From the NCBI RefSeq assembly GCF_023806465.1, contig NZ_JAMSLS010000003.1, positions 310,001-374,000 on the forward strand: a DNA stretch of 64,000 nucleotides, given 5' to 3'. Under the pieces are notes generated by a model that was not told the origin of the DNA, ran no database searches, and saw only the letters and a list, made by a program, of their open reading frames with translations. Positions 51,153 through 60,112 of the stretch are shown here, one piece after another. Made by a program: the position numbers and the translations under genes. Each line of letters begins with the position of its first letter. Position 1 is the first letter of the stretch. This stretch comes from Thermomicrobium sp. CFH 73360. Lineage in GTDB: Bacteria; Chloroflexota; Chloroflexia; Thermomicrobiales; Thermomicrobiaceae.

Positions 51153-52057
51153 ATGGATCTGGAGGTACTCGCGAGGACGATCGCAGAGTTACGAGAGCGG
51201 GCAAAGCAGTATCAGTCGCTCATGGCACAGAACGAAGCACAGACACGGATCTCGCTGATCGATCCCCTGCTCCGGGCGCTTGGCTGGCCGCTCGAAGACC
51301 CGGCAAGGGTTCTCGTGGAGGTGCGGATAGGTAACAGTCGTGTCGACTATGTTCTCGGGGCGGGAGAGCAGCCGCTGCTGGTGCTGGAGGCGAAGTCACT
51401 CGGATCGACGCTGAACATCGCACAGTCAGCCGCCGTGAGCTACGCCTGGGAGTTGGTGCGGCAGGGACAGCAACCGAGGTGGGTGGGAGTCACTGATGGG
51501 TTGCGGTGGGCAATCTACGACCCGCACAATCTGAAGAGTGCGATCATCGACATCGATGTGGGTGACACGAAGCGATCAGCTGAGAGCCAGGCGTTGGCAC
51601 TTGCGCAGGTGCTGTGGCAGCGTCTTTTCGCTGGAGTCAGTTCGCGCCCAGTGGAGTCGAATGCGTGGGTCCCGTTGAGCAAGCTCTCCCCAAGGCCTGG
51701 TGCAAAGCCGCCGGTTGAGGTTCGGTTCCCTGATAACCGGTGGAGGTTCTTGATGGGAGAACCTGGAAGGCGTTGCTGGTTGCGGTCGCGGAGTGGCTAA
51801 TCGAAAAAGGGAAGCTGACAGCCAGTGCCTGTCCAATCCCAATCGGTGAGAAGACGTACCTCGTCCACACAGAGCCCATCTATCCGACGGGGAAGCGTTT
51901 TCGGGTTCCCTACCGTTTGTCCAACGGGCTGATGTTGGACGGTCACTACTGGGCACCAGAGGCCGCGCGACACAGCCGACGACTGCTCCAGCGCTTTGGA
52001 GTCGATCCTGCGGGGGTTCTCGTCGCAATTGATCGATCCGAGCTTTCTCCTGCGTGA
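51153..52057 (+). pseudogene. HsdR-N-like nuclease gene interrupted by one frameshift
   Basis: Two overlapping frames (51153-51800 and about 51740-52057) together make one protein of about 301 residues. The first part has LIDPLLRALGW, then the PD-(D/E)xK nuclease residues: Asp in SRVDYVL and Glu-Ala-Lys in LVLEAKSLG, as in the N-terminal domain of type I restriction HsdR subunits. Near 51742 the frame shifts by -1: restoring one G (TGGGAGG instead of TGGAGG) would read NRWEVLDGRTWKALLV and continue to the stop at 52057. It is a single-base deletion in a G run, a sequencing error, or a slippage site. No helicase or methylase is nearby. Confidence 0.75.
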
Positions 52058-53564: not shown

Positions 53565-54128
53565 TCATTCGCTGAGTGCTGCCTGCACAACAGCGGCGGC
53601 TGAAAGCAGGAGTTCGGCGGCGAGTGCACCAACGAGTGTAACGAGGAGCAGCTCCACGGCGATTGTCGCCAGACCCGCGAGATGGCGGAGCACATCGTCG
53701 AGTGTGACCGGTGACCCCAGCGCAGCAAGCGCGAGTAGCGAAGTCACCGCAAGCACCAGCTCAGCCAGAAGACTGTGGCGCAGAAGTCTCGTCGCCAGAC
53801 GCTTCGTCAAGGGCAGTGAACAGGCACAGAGGACAGCACGGCGAAGTGCCTCACGGTCGAAAACAACTTGAGGCCGTGGAGGCTGATACGGGCGCAGGAG
53901 GCGCGGGTGGACTGGAACGGTGCGGTCCGCGCTCGCACCGTGCGGGTGCAGGGTCACGGTCTCTGCGAGCGTGGGATGACGTGACGGGACGAGGCCGAAC
54001 CGAGCACAAACTGTCCCGACTGCGTGCCCAATACGGAAGCCGCAGGTGTAGAGTGAATCACCTGTCGGACGCTCGGTGGGGAGCGTCGGCTGAAACTCGA
54101 GGACTCGCAACGTTACAGCCATCGACAT
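53565..54128 (-). CDS. Hypothetical membrane protein downstream of the double P-type ATPase
   Basis: 187 residues if started at ATG 54128 (54122 is an equal choice; the frame is open back to 54203). A soluble N-terminal half with Cys-Gly-Phe (YTCGFRIGHAVGTVCARFG), a His-rich stretch and a Pro-rich RPYQPPRPQ; then a C-terminal half with two or three hydrophobic helices (about 115-185). No family recognised. It lies downstream of the P-type ATPase on the same strand, separated by 430 bp, so functional linkage is plausible but unproven. Confidence 0.6.
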   Translation of the reverse strand: MSMAVTLRVLEFQPTLPTERPTGDSLYTCGFRIGHAVGTVCARFGLVPSRHPTLAETVTLHPHGASADRTVPVHPRLLRPYQPPRPQVVFDREALRRAVLCACSLPLTKRLATRLLRHSLLAELVLAVTSLLALAALGSPVTLDDVLRHLAGLATIAVELLLVTLVGALAAELLLSAAAVVQAALSE

Positions 54129-54555: not shown

Positions 54556-57500
54556 CTACGCCGGGCGCGGACTGAGAACGGCAGAGGGGCGGGGAGCGGG
54601 AAGAGCAGGGAGATCACGGATGAGGGTCGTCGAAAGACGGCTGCTGAGGACTGTGGCAGCCACTGCAACCGCGGTGGCGGCGAGTCCGGTGGGACTGAGC
54701 GGTGCTAAGCCGAGTAGTGCCCGTGCAGGTGGAATGGTCAGGGAGGCCGCAAGGACAAGGGTCGAGGCAGCGACCCCGGTGAGCAGGCTTGGGGTCAGAC
54801 CGCTTCCGGTGATCCCAAGTTCCAAAGCCTGGGCGAGCTGTGCGGCAACAAGGGAGGCAAAACCGATGGTGCTGGCCTCGGCTGGCAGTGCCCGGTACGC
54901 CCAGAGCGTGACAAGTCCAGCGGGAATCGCAGTAGTCGCCGCGCGACGGAGAACATCGATGCGCACGGTGTGGTCAAGCGCCTGCTCACCCTCACGGGCC
55001 AGGTCAGTAAGTCGACGATACCGAGGTTGCTGGAGGGCGATGGCGAGTGCCGGTGGGACGTCGGTGATCATGTTGACCATCAGAACCTGTCGGGTGTTGA
55101 GCGGCGGCGTGACAGTGAACAACGTTGGAATAGCAATCATCCCAAGTTCACCAAGGTTGCCGCCGAGCAGGAGGGCAACAGAGCGCCGCATATTGCGCCA
55201 GAAGCTGCGTCCTTGAACGAGTGCATCGACGATTGCCTCGAAGTCATCACGTGTCAATACGAGGTCAGCAGCCTCGCGGGCGACTGCTGTGCCCCAGCCC
55301 ATCGCGATGCCCACATCGGCGAGTCGGAGGGCGGGGGCGTCATTCACCCCGTCGCCGGTCATAGCCACCACATCGCCATGCGCTCGCAGCAGCTGCACAA
55401 TTCGCAGCTTGTCGAGCGGTGTGGCTCGAGCGACGACACTGGCCTGTGCGAGGCGTTCGACGAGGGTATGGTCCTCCAGCTCACGCAAGAGTGAGGCATT
55501 GAGGATCCGTTCCGGACCGACCGGGAGACCGGCCTCCCGGGCGATCGCCTCAGCGGTTGCCGGATGATCACCGGTGATCATTAAGACGCGAACGCCGGCC
55601 TCGTGACAACGACGAACTGCATCAGGAACACGAGGGCGCAGGGCATCAGCGATGCCGATGAGTCCAAGGACGACAAGGTCGCGCGGGTCGTCGAGCGGTA
55701 TTGTGGCTGGTCCCTCGACCACGAGGAGTACCCGAAGACCATCTTGGGCTAGGCGTAAAGCTGCCTCGTGCAGTGACTGGAGGCGACCGGGATCGCATGG
55801 GGAGTCAGAACCATCGGCGAGACGCACCGCGACGCAGCGCGGCAGAAGATATTCATGACTTCCCTTAATGACCACGCGCTCGCGCATGCGGACGGCGTGG
55901 TAGGGTCGCAACGAGTCGAAGGGGAGCTCCTCTAGACGCTCGTCTCCGCCGTTGACCCCCGGGAGCTCAAGCAGGCGGGCTGCCTCGATGATCGCCGCGT
56001 CGGTGGCATGAGCCAATGCGTCTTTCCGGTCGAGTGCCGGGCTGGCAAGGAGAGCGGCGGCGATCACCTGCCGTGCTCCTGGCGAGCAGGTTGGAGACAG
56101 TTCTTCATCGGATCCATCGCTGACAATTCGCCGGACACTCATGCGACCATAGGTCAGCGTGCCGGTCTTGTCGACGCAGACGACATTGACACGGCCCAGG
56201 GCTTCGACTGCTGACAACTGGCGGACCAGGATTCCCCGTTGGGCGAGACGACGTGCGGTCGCTGCCTCGCTGAGGCGGCTGAGGAGCGGGAGACCCTCCG
56301 GAACAGCAGCGATGGCGAGACTTGCCCCCAAGGCGAGCTGGCTAGCGACCGGTGCGCCGCGGAGGATGCCGGCGAGTGTGACGAGTGCCCCGGCACCTAA
56401 CGAGATGGGGAGGCTCAGGCGAGTGTACTGGGCCAGGCGCTTGGCCAAGTGTTCGCCGGTCATGTCCGACTTGTGGAGCGCACGTTGCGCAGCGCCGAGA
56501 CGTGTCGCTTCGCCAGTCGCGATGACAACTGCAGTGGCGTTGCCACTCAGGATATCGGTGCCGGCGAGGACGACTGCCCGTTCGTCGGTGGCCGTGGCAT
56601 CTTTGATGACCGGAAGCGACTCCCCAGTCAATGCAGATTCATCGACGAGTAGGTTGTCAGCCATCAGGAGTCGTGCATCGGCAGGAACGCGATCGCCGAA
56701 CGCAAGGCGGATCACGTCGCCGGGGACGAGTTCGGTGGCTGGCAGGGTAACTTCCTGACCATCGCGCAGGACACGCGCTGGGGGCGCGGAGAGTTCGGCG
56801 AGCTGAACAGCGGCGCGTGAGACACGCTGCTCCTGCCAAGCTCCGACCGCCACATTGAAAATGAGTGTTCCAGTGATGATGGCGACATCGAGTGATGCGC
56901 CAACGGCAAGTGAAAGGCCAGCACCCGCCGCCATGATCGCGAGAAGCGGAGAACTAAGCTGGCTGATCAAGGCACGGATCCACGGTCCTTCAGTCGACTC
57001 GAAGGAGGGGGCACTGCGACGTTGCCGCACCTCAGCGCTCGTGAGGCCCTCAGGCCGGCTATTGAGGAGGGTAAGCGTTTCACTGGGAGACTGCGCGCCC
57101 CAACGCTCCGGCTCCGGGTCTATGAAGGGAAGTGCCGTCTGGCGCTCTCCGCCCCAGAGGCGGGCCCAGCCAGTGAGGAGTGCAAGGAATGCGCCGCCAC
57201 CGACGACGAGACCGACGAGGATTGGAGATGGTGTCGCACCAAGCCCGACGCCGAGAGCGAGGGCATTAGCGGCCAGGGAGAAGACGACGCTGTCGCGAAC
57301 GGCAGCATCCCGTCGCTGTCCCGTCTCAAGCAGGTTCGCCAAAGCGCCCAGATCCGGGATCAGGACATCCACCGGAATGTCCACTGGGTGGCGGGACGAC
57401 GTGAGCAGCGCGGAGTAGTGTGCGGCAGCGAAGGCGCGACCAGCAGTACCGTGGTCAGCGACGTAGAGGACAATCTCGCCACGGGTCCGGAGCGTGGTTA

Positions 57501-59385
57501 CTAGCCCAACCGGGTCATTATTCTGGATGATGGCGAGGCCAGTTGTCTCCAGCCACGGAGGAACTTCACCATCTGATATGCGGACGAATAGTTGAGTGCC
57601 GACGCGTTTGGCGGTCTCGTGCAACGTGGCAAGATGTCGGCGCAGCTTGGGGCGTAATGGCAAGAGGGCAACTAGATGGTCATCGTGTCCCTCGAACAGG
57701 CCAAGGACAAGCGGTGCGTCCCGGAGCGCTGCCAAGACCTCTGGGGGGAGGCTGTGAAATTTGTCCAGATTGATGACAGCAAGACGAAAACGGTCGGGGT
57801 CCAAACCGTTGAGGTGACCATGAGATACGGGAAGGGCGGTCCGCCATGGCGTGTCAGTGGCCAAACGCGTGGCGAGAGTCAAGACACTCCCAACTGTGAG
57901 CTGGTCAGTGAGGAGCAGGCAGCGGTCGAGTTCCAGCCCCTCGATGAGCAAGCCTGGATGGTCGAAGAGAAGGACGGTCGGGCGTGTCAGGCGACGATGG
58001 GGCCGTAAGGCGGTAACGAGAGCCCCACCACGGAGGGCGCGAGCGACGGCGCCGAGGTCAGCTGCTTCAGCCCCGATGAGTGCCGTGCGAGCGTTGACAA
58101 GGACCAGCGCACGCGCAGCTGCCGTGAGGGAGCGTGTCACGAGCCCAGCGAAACCGGCGTACGCGAAGGCGACAGGGGTAATAAAACGGAGGTACCAGCG
58201 GAGAAGAGGGGGATGGGGCTCGCTCGTCGAAAATGGTTCTGTTGGCGGTGGGGCGAGTAGGAGGCCGGTCAGCTCGCCACCAAGCACGAGGGAACCGGCA
58301 GGGAGACGGCGAAGTGGGCGGACATGCTCGATGTGACCGTCCGGGTATAGGACTTCGCCGCTACCGCGTTCGATCCGGCAGTCGAAGGGGCTTCGGTCAC
58401 CCGGACGCAGTGTGATGCGCACTGTTGGTCGAGCGACGCGGGACCGCAGGAGCTCCGACTCGTAGCGCTGCCAGGCGCGGCGCCAGGGGAGGAGAGCGGA
58501 GAGGAGCCGCAACGACTCCGTGAGGCTGACGAGGAGTCCGAGCTGTTGATTGTTCGCTGTCTGAGCCAGGATACTGACGGAGCTTGTGGAGACGTCCGCG
58601 GCTACTGGACCAAGGACGCGCCGCAGCCCTTCCCGGAAAGCGGGAAAGCCGCGGAGGACGGTGACGGTGTCTGCAGCAAGCCCGGGGAGCGGGCTCGTGG
58701 TAAGTGGCCCAATGCCGAGAAGTTGGCGCGCGGCAAGAAACGCGAGAGCACCGGCCGTTGCGGCCGTGCGCCAGGCCGCGTAGAGCAGTGGTCCGCAGTC
58801 AGTGGGGACAACTGTGCGGCGCACGGTTGGTGGTTCTTCAGGCAGCGAAATCCCGCTGATCGTTTCGAGGATCGAATCAAGGTCGACCGTTTCGATTTCG
58901 TGCTCCACCAGGAGGCGACCGGTGGTAACGCTGGCGCGGGCCACCCGGACGCCGGCTTGTTCGAGGGTCTCTTCAATCTGACGAGCGAGTGCATCGTTGC
59001 CTTCAAGCCCGGGGATACGGAGTCGAAGGCGCTGCCAATGGTGGCCCTGACTGTCAACGCGGAGTGTGCGATGCTCGATCGACGCGCGCTGGGCGTTCGA
59101 GGGAGCTAGCTCGAGGGACGTGGCGCTCGCTGGACTTGCGGCATCGGTGAGGGCGTGTTCGATGGCCTGCTGAATTTCCCCGTCCGATGTGCTCTGCGGG
59201 TCGAAGCGGACGAGGACACTTCCCGTGAGAGGATCTGTCCGAACCTCGAGGATCCCCGGTTGGCGGAGTCTCTGCGGCAGACCGCTGAGTCTGCCCCGCT
59301 GGTCGATCGCAATGCGAAATCGCACACGGCCAGGCAACCGGTGGGCAACACGGACCACCGGCACACCCACAGTGGTGTCACTCAT
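54556..59385 (-). CDS. Giant double P-type ATPase (CtpI-like) with inactive N-terminal half
   Basis: 1609 residues, about twice a normal P-type ATPase and similar in size and layout to mycobacterial CtpI. Two HMA-like domains (about 10-70 and 120-175, starting HRLPGRVRFRI) lack CxxC. A first ATPase-like half follows (about 190-745), with actuator-like and membrane parts, but its phosphorylation site reads Asp475-His-Pro-Gly instead of DKTGT. The second half is a complete P2-like pump: LTGES at 919-923, phosphorylated Asp1072 in DKTGTLT, TGDGVND at 1343-1349, and C-terminal helices. Transported ion unknown. Preceded by two small companion genes. Confidence 0.93.
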   Translation of the reverse strand: MSDTTVGVPVVRVAHRLPGRVRFRIAIDQRGRLSGLPQRLRQPGILEVRTDPLTGSVLVRFDPQSTSDGEIQQAIEHALTDAASPASATSLELAPSNAQRASIEHRTLRVDSQGHHWQRLRLRIPGLEGNDALARQIEETLEQAGVRVARASVTTGRLLVEHEIETVDLDSILETISGISLPEEPPTVRRTVVPTDCGPLLYAAWRTAATAGALAFLAARQLLGIGPLTTSPLPGLAADTVTVLRGFPAFREGLRRVLGPVAADVSTSSVSILAQTANNQQLGLLVSLTESLRLLSALLPWRRAWQRYESELLRSRVARPTVRITLRPGDRSPFDCRIERGSGEVLYPDGHIEHVRPLRRLPAGSLVLGGELTGLLLAPPPTEPFSTSEPHPPLLRWYLRFITPVAFAYAGFAGLVTRSLTAAARALVLVNARTALIGAEAADLGAVARALRGGALVTALRPHRRLTRPTVLLFDHPGLLIEGLELDRCLLLTDQLTVGSVLTLATRLATDTPWRTALPVSHGHLNGLDPDRFRLAVINLDKFHSLPPEVLAALRDAPLVLGLFEGHDDHLVALLPLRPKLRRHLATLHETAKRVGTQLFVRISDGEVPPWLETTGLAIIQNNDPVGLVTTLRTRGEIVLYVADHGTAGRAFAAAHYSALLTSSRHPVDIPVDVLIPDLGALANLLETGQRRDAAVRDSVVFSLAANALALGVGLGATPSPILVGLVVGGGAFLALLTGWARLWGGERQTALPFIDPEPERWGAQSPSETLTLLNSRPEGLTSAEVRQRRSAPSFESTEGPWIRALISQLSSPLLAIMAAGAGLSLAVGASLDVAIITGTLIFNVAVGAWQEQRVSRAAVQLAELSAPPARVLRDGQEVTLPATELVPGDVIRLAFGDRVPADARLLMADNLLVDESALTGESLPVIKDATATDERAVVLAGTDILSGNATAVVIATGEATRLGAAQRALHKSDMTGEHLAKRLAQYTRLSLPISLGAGALVTLAGILRGAPVASQLALGASLAIAAVPEGLPLLSRLSEAATARRLAQRGILVRQLSAVEALGRVNVVCVDKTGTLTYGRMSVRRIVSDGSDEELSPTCSPGARQVIAAALLASPALDRKDALAHATDAAIIEAARLLELPGVNGGDERLEELPFDSLRPYHAVRMRERVVIKGSHEYLLPRCVAVRLADGSDSPCDPGRLQSLHEAALRLAQDGLRVLLVVEGPATIPLDDPRDLVVLGLIGIADALRPRVPDAVRRCHEAGVRVLMITGDHPATAEAIAREAGLPVGPERILNASLLRELEDHTLVERLAQASVVARATPLDKLRIVQLLRAHGDVVAMTGDGVNDAPALRLADVGIAMGWGTAVAREAADLVLTRDDFEAIVDALVQGRSFWRNMRRSVALLLGGNLGELGMIAIPTLFTVTPPLNTRQVLMVNMITDVPPALAIALQQPRYRRLTDLAREGEQALDHTVRIDVLRRAATTAIPAGLVTLWAYRALPAEASTIGFASLVAAQLAQALELGITGSGLTPSLLTGVAASTLVLAASLTIPPARALLGLAPLSPTGLAATAVAVAATVLSSRLSTTLIRDLPALPAPRPSAVLSPRPA

Positions 59386-59415
59386 CTCTGACGAACCCCC
59401 GGATGGCTTCGCGTC

Positions 59416-59850
59416 CTAGCGCTGCGCGCCGGACCGCCGCCGTACCTCGCCGCGCCACTGGCTCCGGACTGCCTCGGCCTCGGCGACGAGATCTTCTACT
59501 TCCTCACGGGCGCGAGCGACAAGCTTGCGGACACGCTGCGCCAGTACGGTACCGAAGGCTGCGCCCCACACGAGCGCCTCGTCGAGCATCTGCTCTGCCC
59601 GAAGCACAGCCACCGGTGGGGCTGTCGGCGTGCCGCCATCACTCGGCGATGATGACGACGACGTCCCCGTTTCCGAAGTGGACTCGGATAACTCCGCAGC
59701 GCGTGTTTCTGTCACACTGGCTTCTCCGCTCGCGCGTGCCGCGCGGCGGGCACTCCTGGGTGGCGTCGTGTCGGCTTGCGCAGCACTGGCCGCGCCCTCA
59801 GCTGCGGCATGCCCGTTTTGCTCGGGTGGTGTCTCTCCTTCTGGCTGCAT
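59416..59850 (-). CDS. Small companion protein with disordered N-terminus and amphipathic helices
   Basis: 144 residues from ATG at 59850 (a TTG at 59880 is less likely). The first about 90 residues are low complexity (Glu/Ala/Ser/Thr/Pro). The C-terminus forms a helical region (MLDEALVWGAAFGTVLAQ, then VARAREEVEDLVAEAEAVR). The helical end recalls small proteins found beside CtpI/CtpV-like ATPases, but I cannot assign a family. Lies 30 bp upstream of the ATPase on the same strand. Confidence 0.6.
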   Translation of the reverse strand: MQPEGETPPEQNGHAAAEGAASAAQADTTPPRSARRAARASGEASVTETRAAELSESTSETGTSSSSSPSDGGTPTAPPVAVLRAEQMLDEALVWGAAFGTVLAQRVRKLVARAREEVEDLVAEAEAVRSQWRGEVRRRSGAQR

Positions 59851-59881
59851 GGTGTACTCACCCTGCACGGTGACCCCCAAG

Positions 59882-60112
59882 TCAGTTGAGGTTGATCTGT
59901 GAAGCAGGACGCGCTCGAGTCACTGCTGCGGTAAAGCCCGCGCGTGTTCCCTGGAGAAGCGAGCGTCCGGCCTCGACTGCAGTGAGAATCCCGGCAAGGC
60001 CGTAGACGACACCACGCCGAACGACGCGGCGTGCACGCGGTGAGAGAATCAACGCGGTTGCCGCAATCGCCACCGCGGTTTCGGTCTCGACGTAGTCCTC
60101 AAGGTCGAACAT
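59882..60112 (-). CDS. Small membrane-associated protein of the P-type ATPase cassette
   Basis: 76 residues from ATG at 60112 with AAGGGGG upstream. One hydrophobic segment (ETAVAIAATALILSP) followed by a basic patch RARRVVRRGVVYGLAGILTAVEAGRS. This hydrophobic-then-basic plan is typical of small DUF5132-like proteins next to CtpI-type ATPases; the resemblance is by eye only. First gene of the cassette. Confidence 0.6.
   Translation of the reverse strand: MFDLEDYVETETAVAIAATALILSPRARRVVRRGVVYGLAGILTAVEAGRSLLQGTRAGFTAAVTRARPASQINLN

What the first reader, a model, noticed from the sequence alone, without database searches (positions are those of the whole stretch)
54556..60112. Double P-type ATPase with a dead first half, and small companions, as a cassette
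The N-terminal half replaces the phosphorylated DKTGT with Asp-His-Pro-Gly at 475-478, whereas the C-terminal half is intact. Retaining a whole pseudo-ATPase suggests a regulatory or structural role, perhaps an intramolecular heterodimer. Small proteins lie immediately upstream, and a further membrane protein downstream. The transported substrate of this CtpI-like class is unknown.
Basis: partly seen in the sequence, partly recalled or inferred. Interest (0 to 1): 0.7.

Follow-up and report, generated by a model that had tools for sequence, protein, structure and literature searches.

The report
Calcium-type pump fused to dead pump
A bacterial membrane pump of the calcium/manganese type carries a whole second pump of a different (heavy-metal) type that has lost all its catalytic parts, and it is almost always encoded right behind two small proteins, which suggests the dead half was kept as a docking or control platform.

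Summary
In detail: one 1609-aa ORF (54556-59385, minus) holds two P-type ATPase cores. The only DKTGT is in the C half; the first half has DHPG at 475-478 and has lost TGES, GDGxND and the SEHP histidine. The two halves are not a duplication. The first is a degenerate P1B (metal-pump) ATPase whose nearest live kin include PacL-partnered CtpC-like pumps. The second is an intact P2A Ca/Mn-type pump. All 55 distinct first halves compared (Chloroflexota, Armatimonadota, Actinomycetota) are dead and form one clade, yet evolve under purifying selection (dN/dS 0.10-0.16). The family is the known, poorly characterised CtpI/CtpH group (FUPA24). What I did not find described is the cassette: two small proteins, sA and sB, lie upstream on the same strand in 33 and 31 of 35 loci, and in 400 Chloroflexota genomes sA and the pump co-occur almost perfectly (Fisher p 7e-33). 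sB weakly resembles the Glu/Ala helix of PacL/DUF5132-type ATPase partners; sA matches no family. Most likely reading: a P2A divalent-cation exporter captured into a PacL-like platform, with the dead P1B half as docking or regulatory module. Cassette, degeneration and ancestry are shown; mechanism and substrate are inferred.

The parts
54556..59385 (-). Double-length P-type ATPase, 1609 aa (FUPA24/CtpI-CtpH class)
58855..59385 (-). Residues 1-177: two HMA-like ferredoxin-fold domains (Pfam HMA_2 at 10-77; a second at about 102-177 in the model), no CxxC
57121..58854 (-). Residues about 178-755: dead P1B-type ATPase core (TM helices, A-, P-, N-like domains)
57952..57963 (-). DHPG (475-478), the degenerate phosphorylation motif; Asp475 position retained in nearly all homologues
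54559..57120 (-). Residues 756-1609: live P2A-type ATPase; PEGLP (E1030), GGNLGEL (N1410, E1413), NMITD (N1438, T1441, D1442), DKTGT 1072
59416..59880 (-). sB: 154 aa (144 aa from the ATG at 59850), disordered-looking N part, conserved C-terminal Glu/Ala helix (AREEVEDLVAEAE); 30 bp from the ATPase
59882..60112 (-). sA: 76 aa, acidic start, moderately hydrophobic segments, conserved RRGxVYGLAG; no Pfam family
53565..54128 (-). sC: 187-aa hydrophobic protein conserved downstream only in Thermomicrobiaceae loci; association with the cassette uncertain

Best explanation
The cassette encodes a P2A-type divalent-cation exporter (Ca2+ most likely, Mn2+ possible) whose N terminus is a whole P1B-type pump that has lost phosphorylation, dephosphorylation, ATP-site and metal-site residues. 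I propose that this pseudo-pump is kept as a docking and regulatory module: it is the part that once paired with PacL-like small membrane proteins, and sA and sB still bind it, stabilise the long pump and gather it in membrane clusters ('effluxosome'-like), while the HMA-like domains may gate activity. Shown: architecture, degeneration in every homologue, P1B ancestry next to PacL-partnered pumps, a single origin of the dead half, purifying selection, near-obligate linkage of sA and sB. Inferred: physical contact of sA/sB with the dead half, clustering, substrate, gating.
For: One DKTGT per double protein; loss of DKTGT, TGES, GDGxND in 55/55 distinct N halves and of the SEHP His wherever that region aligns. 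AlphaFold of the N half: pLDDT 85, pTM 0.79, best VIA-align match the Zn P1B ATPase 4umv, Z 20.1, 480 residues, 5.0 A; by profile, P1B ATP7B E 6e-26 versus P2A 2e-4. Tree: N halves within the P1B side (100/100), monophyletic (100/100), nearest kin a P1B with intact DKTGT (L060; 97/97), then CtpC-like pumps and HMA_2 P1Bs. CtpC-like genes sit beside PacL, DUF5132 genes beside HMA_2 P1Bs, L060 beside a PacL-like small ORF. C half: best PDB hits LMCA1 (5e-101), SPCA1, SERCA; TM4-6 Ca ligands kept across the family. dN/dS of N core 0.10-0.16, sA 0.08-0.17. sA and sB linked in 33 and 31 of 35 loci; co-occurrence p 7e-33. sB versus DUF5132-type set: hhalign 86% over 37 columns. PacL stabilises and clusters its pumps (PMC9374683, PMC13043812); CtpH linked to calcium pumping (PMC9180918).
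Against: sA has no significant link to PacL/DUF5132 (hhalign 7.8%), and sB's match is a short, biased helix. Neither carries a His-rich PacL metal-binding tail and both are only moderately hydrophobic, so membrane insertion is uncertain. Actinobacterial homologues keep a dead half, with the actuator domain deleted, but lack sA, so sA/sB cannot be the only reason to keep it. No structure of the two halves together was resolved. Metal context is thin: a DtxR/MntR-type regulator in two loci, Nramp in two of one genus.
Confidence: 0.42

Rival explanations
1. The dead half is an autoregulatory sensor: its HMA-like domains and empty core bind a metal or nucleotide and hold the live half inhibited or active; sA and sB are accessory and need not dock on it.
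For: Two HMA-like domains are retained; the dead half is kept in actinobacteria without sA; purifying selection on the core.
Against: HMA domains have no CxxC and the TM4 metal motif is lost, so the ligand is unclear; it does not explain the near-perfect linkage to sA and sB.
Confidence: 0.33
2. The dead half is a structural relic of one ancient fusion, needed only for folding, stability or membrane insertion of the long protein.
For: One origin; the actuator domain is deleted in actinobacteria, showing tolerance of large losses; it evolves faster than the live half.
Against: A nearly complete fold is kept in this lineage, dN/dS is 0.10-0.16 and many columns are invariant across phyla.
Confidence: 0.15
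3. The first half has a different HAD-type chemistry (for example a slow phosphatase) using Asp475 and Asp644.
For: Asp475 is kept in nearly all N halves, and Asp644 in the Chloroflexota/Armatimonadota ones.
Against: His replaces Asp475 in some (L098, L147); the HAD Lys/Thr motifs and the ATP-binding His are gone; Asp644 is not kept in actinobacteria.
Confidence: 0.05
4. The linkage of sA and sB is only co-inheritance of a mobile cassette, and the small proteins serve another process.
For: Patchy distribution (25 of 400 Chloroflexota genomes); extra sA-sB pairs lie divergent to the pump in four Ktedonobacteria loci.
Against: No other gene is shared by the loci, and every sA found lies next to the pump or at a contig end.
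Confidence: 0.05

Closest known systems
CtpI/CtpH of mycobacteria (FUPA24, TC 3.A.3.24)
   Same: Double length, functional motifs only in the C half, PEGL/PEGM in TM4, one homologous dead N half
   Different: The Chloroflexota form keeps an A-like domain and an N-terminal HMA_2 and travels with sA and sB; actinobacterial forms lack sA and the A domain
PacL1-CtpC / PacL2-CtpG effluxosome modules (DUF1490; DUF6110 PacL-like)
   Same: Small protein(s) encoded just upstream of a P-ATPase; sB has a Glu/Ala-rich helix; the dead half is nearest to CtpC-like and related P1B pumps
   Different: Two proteins instead of one, no His-rich metal motif, partner pump is P2A with a dead P1B domain; no DUF1490/DUF6110 match above cut-off
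LMCA1 / SPCA1 / SERCA (P2A Ca2+/Mn2+ ATPases)
   Same: C half: fold family, catalytic motifs and TM4-6 ligands
   Different: Below the NCBIfam equivalog cut-offs (466 against 798 bits); the TM8 Glu908 position is Gln; fused to the dead half
DUF5132 + HMA_2 + P1B gene clusters of Chloroflexota
   Same: Small Glu/Ala-helix protein before an HMA_2 P1B ATPase
   Different: P1B is alive and single; one small protein; separate HMA_2 gene

Membership tests
FUPA24 (CtpI/CtpH class) | About twice normal length with a large N-terminal segment | tested here: met
   1609 aa; definition from PMC3573892
FUPA24 (CtpI/CtpH class) | P-ATPase functional motifs in the C-terminal half only | tested here: met
FUPA24 (CtpI/CtpH class) | Common ancestry with the mycobacterial double pumps | tested here: met
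   N halves form one clade 100/100 with those of a genome carrying a PacL1-CtpC-like pair and two double pumps; the named CtpI/CtpH records themselves were not fetched
P2A Ca2+-ATPase (C half) | TM4 PEGL, TM5 N/E, TM6 N..TD cation ligands and DKTGT | tested here: met
P2A Ca2+-ATPase (C half) | Reaches a curated IIA equivalog score | tested here: not met
   PMR1 type 466 of 798 bits; SERCA type 390 of 703
P2A Ca2+-ATPase (C half) | Transports Ca2+ (or Mn2+) | not testable with these tools
   needs a transport assay
P1B ATPase (N half) | P1B fold and ancestry | tested here: met
P1B ATPase (N half) | Catalytic motifs and a TM4 metal motif (CPC/SPC) | tested here: not met
   all lost; so a pseudo-P1B, not a P1B pump
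PacL (DUF1490/DUF6110) or DUF5132 - sA | Family profile match | tested here: not met
   no such hit in 22 members; hhalign 7.8%
PacL (DUF1490/DUF6110) or DUF5132 - sB | Family profile match over cut-off | tested here: not met
   only weak hits (best E 0.0034 DUF6110, 0.11 DUF5132)
PacL (DUF1490/DUF6110) or DUF5132 - sB | Glu/Ala-rich helix | tested here: met
PacL | C-terminal metal-binding motif (HDHDH-like) | tested here: not met
   absent in sA and sB here
Effluxosome-type platform | Clustering of the pump by small proteins in the membrane | not testable with these tools
   needs imaging

The most novel reading that the evidence does not exclude
A new type of efflux platform: a Ca2+/Mn2+-type P2A pump was captured by a PacL-like scaffold system through fusion to a P1B pump that then died and now serves only as the docking hub for a split, two-protein scaffold (sA plus sB).
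Probability: 0.3. Interest if true: 0.75.

Novelty: new variant of a known kind. Interest (0 to 1): 0.57.

Why it matters
P-type ATPases are a textbook enzyme family, yet reviewers list CtpI and CtpH as an isolated group of unknown role (PMC10654040). Showing that the extra half is a P1B pump that died once and was kept under selection, and that it travels with two small proteins in this lineage, turns a vague 'large N-terminal segment' into a testable module. It also offers a way to ask what P-ATPase partner proteins bind to, with a thermophile source that may suit structural work.

Tried and rejected
Tandem duplication of one ATPase: rejected, halves fall in different subfamilies. Intact first half hidden by misalignment: rejected, 55 of 55 dead. 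Pseudogene decay: rejected, low dN/dS. sA and sB as named Pfam families: none. Wider operon: no other shared gene beyond the cassette except sC in Thermomicrobiaceae. DUF6110 searches gave nothing, controls silent too, so uninformative. sC versus sB: no link. Heterodimer geometry: joint model pTM 0.54, unresolved. Promoter/terminator scan near chance. Ferrosome (FezA/FezB) link considered from P1B ancestry; key papers not held, so not tested.

Full report
WHAT IS THERE. On the minus strand, 60112 to 54556, three ORFs follow one another: sA (76 aa), sB (154 aa from TTG, 144 aa from ATG) and a 1609-aa P-type ATPase, with gaps of 1 and 30 bp. The genome gives seven matches to the E1-E2 ATPase domain; this is the only double-length protein among them. 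Pfam places HMA_2 at 10-77 and the usual ATPase domains only in 762-1580. DHPG is at 475-478; the only DKTGT is at 1072.

THE FIRST HALF IS A DEAD P1B PUMP. An alignment of 13 first halves and a motif table of 63 rows, 55 distinct by my count, show that DKTGT, TGES and GDGxND are lost in every one, against intact motifs in live P1B controls; the SEHP histidine is gone wherever that region aligns. Asp475 itself is kept in most (His in a few). The TM4 CPC motif reads NAR or NPR. AlphaFold of residues 1-755 from 26 sequences gave pLDDT 85 and pTM 0.79; Foldseek and VIA-align put it on P1B ATPases (4umv ZntA, Z 20.1 over 480 residues, 5.0 A). A profile search of PDB sequences finds ATP7B at 6e-26 and P2A pumps only at 2e-4. 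In a 40-row tree the first halves lie on the P1B side (100/100), form one clade (100/100) that includes actinobacterial CtpI/CtpH-like proteins, and have as neighbours a Bacillota P1B with DKTGT and GDGLND but SGQW in place of TGES (L060; 97/97), then CtpC-like and HMA_2 P1B pumps. In a genome with mycobacterial-type genes the CtpC-like pump follows a PacL1-like gene ending HDHDH, and two double pumps of 1608 and 1516 aa are present. L060's P1B is followed by a PacL/DUF5132-like small ORF. So the double pump is a P1B-P2A fusion whose P1B part died before the split of the lineages sampled, or was spread by transfer after dying; the tree does not separate these.

THE SECOND HALF IS LIVE AND P2A. 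Best PDB relatives are LMCA1 (5e-101), SPCA1 and SERCA. Across the family TM4 is PEG(L/V/M)P, TM5 GGNxGE, TM6 NxxTD in nearly all members seen; here E1030, N1410, E1413, N1438, T1441, D1442 (numbering worked out). By that alignment the SERCA Glu908 position is Gln. It stays below NCBIfam equivalog cut-offs, so it is P2A-like, not a named Ca pump. Published work reports that CtpH takes part in calcium pumping and is induced about 180-fold by Ca2+ in a ctpF mutant, and that CtpI's ion is not characterised (PMC9180918). Ca2+ is therefore the first guess, Mn2+ the second.

THE CASSETTE. In a sample of 400 Chloroflexota genomes 25 have an N-half match (one of these, G125, is a single P1B and one, G123, is of the actinobacterial type) and 23 have sA; 22 share both (Fisher p 7e-33, with G125 left out). 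The one sA genome without the pump ends at a contig edge. Of 35 loci with more than 1.3 kb upstream, 33 have sA and 31 have sB on the same strand close by; in the Armatimonadota locus L275 the pair lies 3.5 kb upstream. No other gene recurs. sA was not found in 14 actinobacterial carriers; Micromonosporaceae instead have another small hydrophobic ORF divergent to the pump.

SELECTION. Nei-Gojobori dN/dS for the dead core is 0.10-0.16, for the live half 0.05-0.13, for sA 0.08-0.17, for sB 0.22-0.31 (synonymous sites are near saturation in the wider pairs, so the L132-L153 pair is the most reliable: 0.157, 0.127, 0.075, 0.309). The dead half is under constraint, so it does something.

WHAT THE SMALL PROTEINS ARE. 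sB ends in a conserved helix AREExEDIWAEAQ, which aligns with the end of DUF5132/PacL-like proteins (hhalign 86%, 37 columns) and gives weak Pfam hits to DUF6110 and DUF5132. sA matches no family; its RRGxVYGLAG recalls the basic residue plus GxxG that PacL needs for clustering (PMC13043812), a resemblance and not a test. Both fail formal PacL membership. The idea that sA and sB are a split PacL is a lead only.

HOW IT MAY WORK. Small PacL proteins stabilise their P1B pumps and cluster them (PMC9374683, PMC13043812). If the dead half descends from such a pump, the simplest reason for keeping it with two small partners is that it remains their docking site, now serving a P2A exporter. That step, like clustering, gating and substrate, is inferred. 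The main alternative is an autoregulatory sensor, which actinobacterial carriers without sA favour. The heterodimer geometry could not be tested: the joint model of both halves had pTM 0.54.

NOVELTY. The pump class is known (FUPA24) and described as uncharacterised (PMC3573892, PMC10654040). In the papers found here I saw no description of the P1B origin and single death of the N half or of the sA-sB cassette; the original FUPA classification papers were not held, so parts may have been noted there.

Noticed in passing
window 53565-54128 (-): sC, a 187-aa hydrophobic protein with no Pfam family, conserved downstream of the pump in four Thermomicrobiaceae loci (CACSLPxTKR, PVHPRxLxPY motifs), dN/dS about 0.2.
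   Followed up: partly
L060:2665-5072: Bacillota contig with a P1B ATPase (DKTGT and GDGLND intact but SGQW instead of TGES) followed by a PacL-like small ORF and convergent to a separate P2 ATPase: a possible half-dead intermediate.
   Followed up: partly
L133:5747-6464; L134:12474-13126; L136:12381-12985; L144:12475-13173: A second sA-sB pair divergent from the cassette in Ktedonobacteria, not followed by any ATPase.
   Followed up: partly
L160:2840-3301; L098:4495-5235: DtxR/MntR-type metalloregulator gene directly upstream of sA on the same strand in two loci.
   Followed up: partly
L143:3990-5450; L145:3872-5332: Nramp-like transporter gene just downstream of the double pump on the same strand in two related genomes.
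   Followed up: no
L014:5664-5921 and equivalents in about 12 actinobacterial loci: Conserved 86-aa hydrophobic ORF (PPPDKxAYYAGLGVLAALQVIEWPLALV) divergent to the actinobacterial double pump.
   Followed up: partly
L201, L203, L204, L215: Chloroflexota clusters of DUF5132 + separate HMA_2 protein, mostly followed by a live HMA_2 P1B ATPase.
   Followed up: partly
L200:3588-8802: HMA_2 P1B ATPase next to FeoA- and FeoB-like genes, hinting at an iron link for this P1B group.
   Followed up: no
window 51153-51800 (+): ORF with weak match to the HsdR N-terminal nuclease domain; a relative lies near the cassette in L008 too.
   Followed up: no
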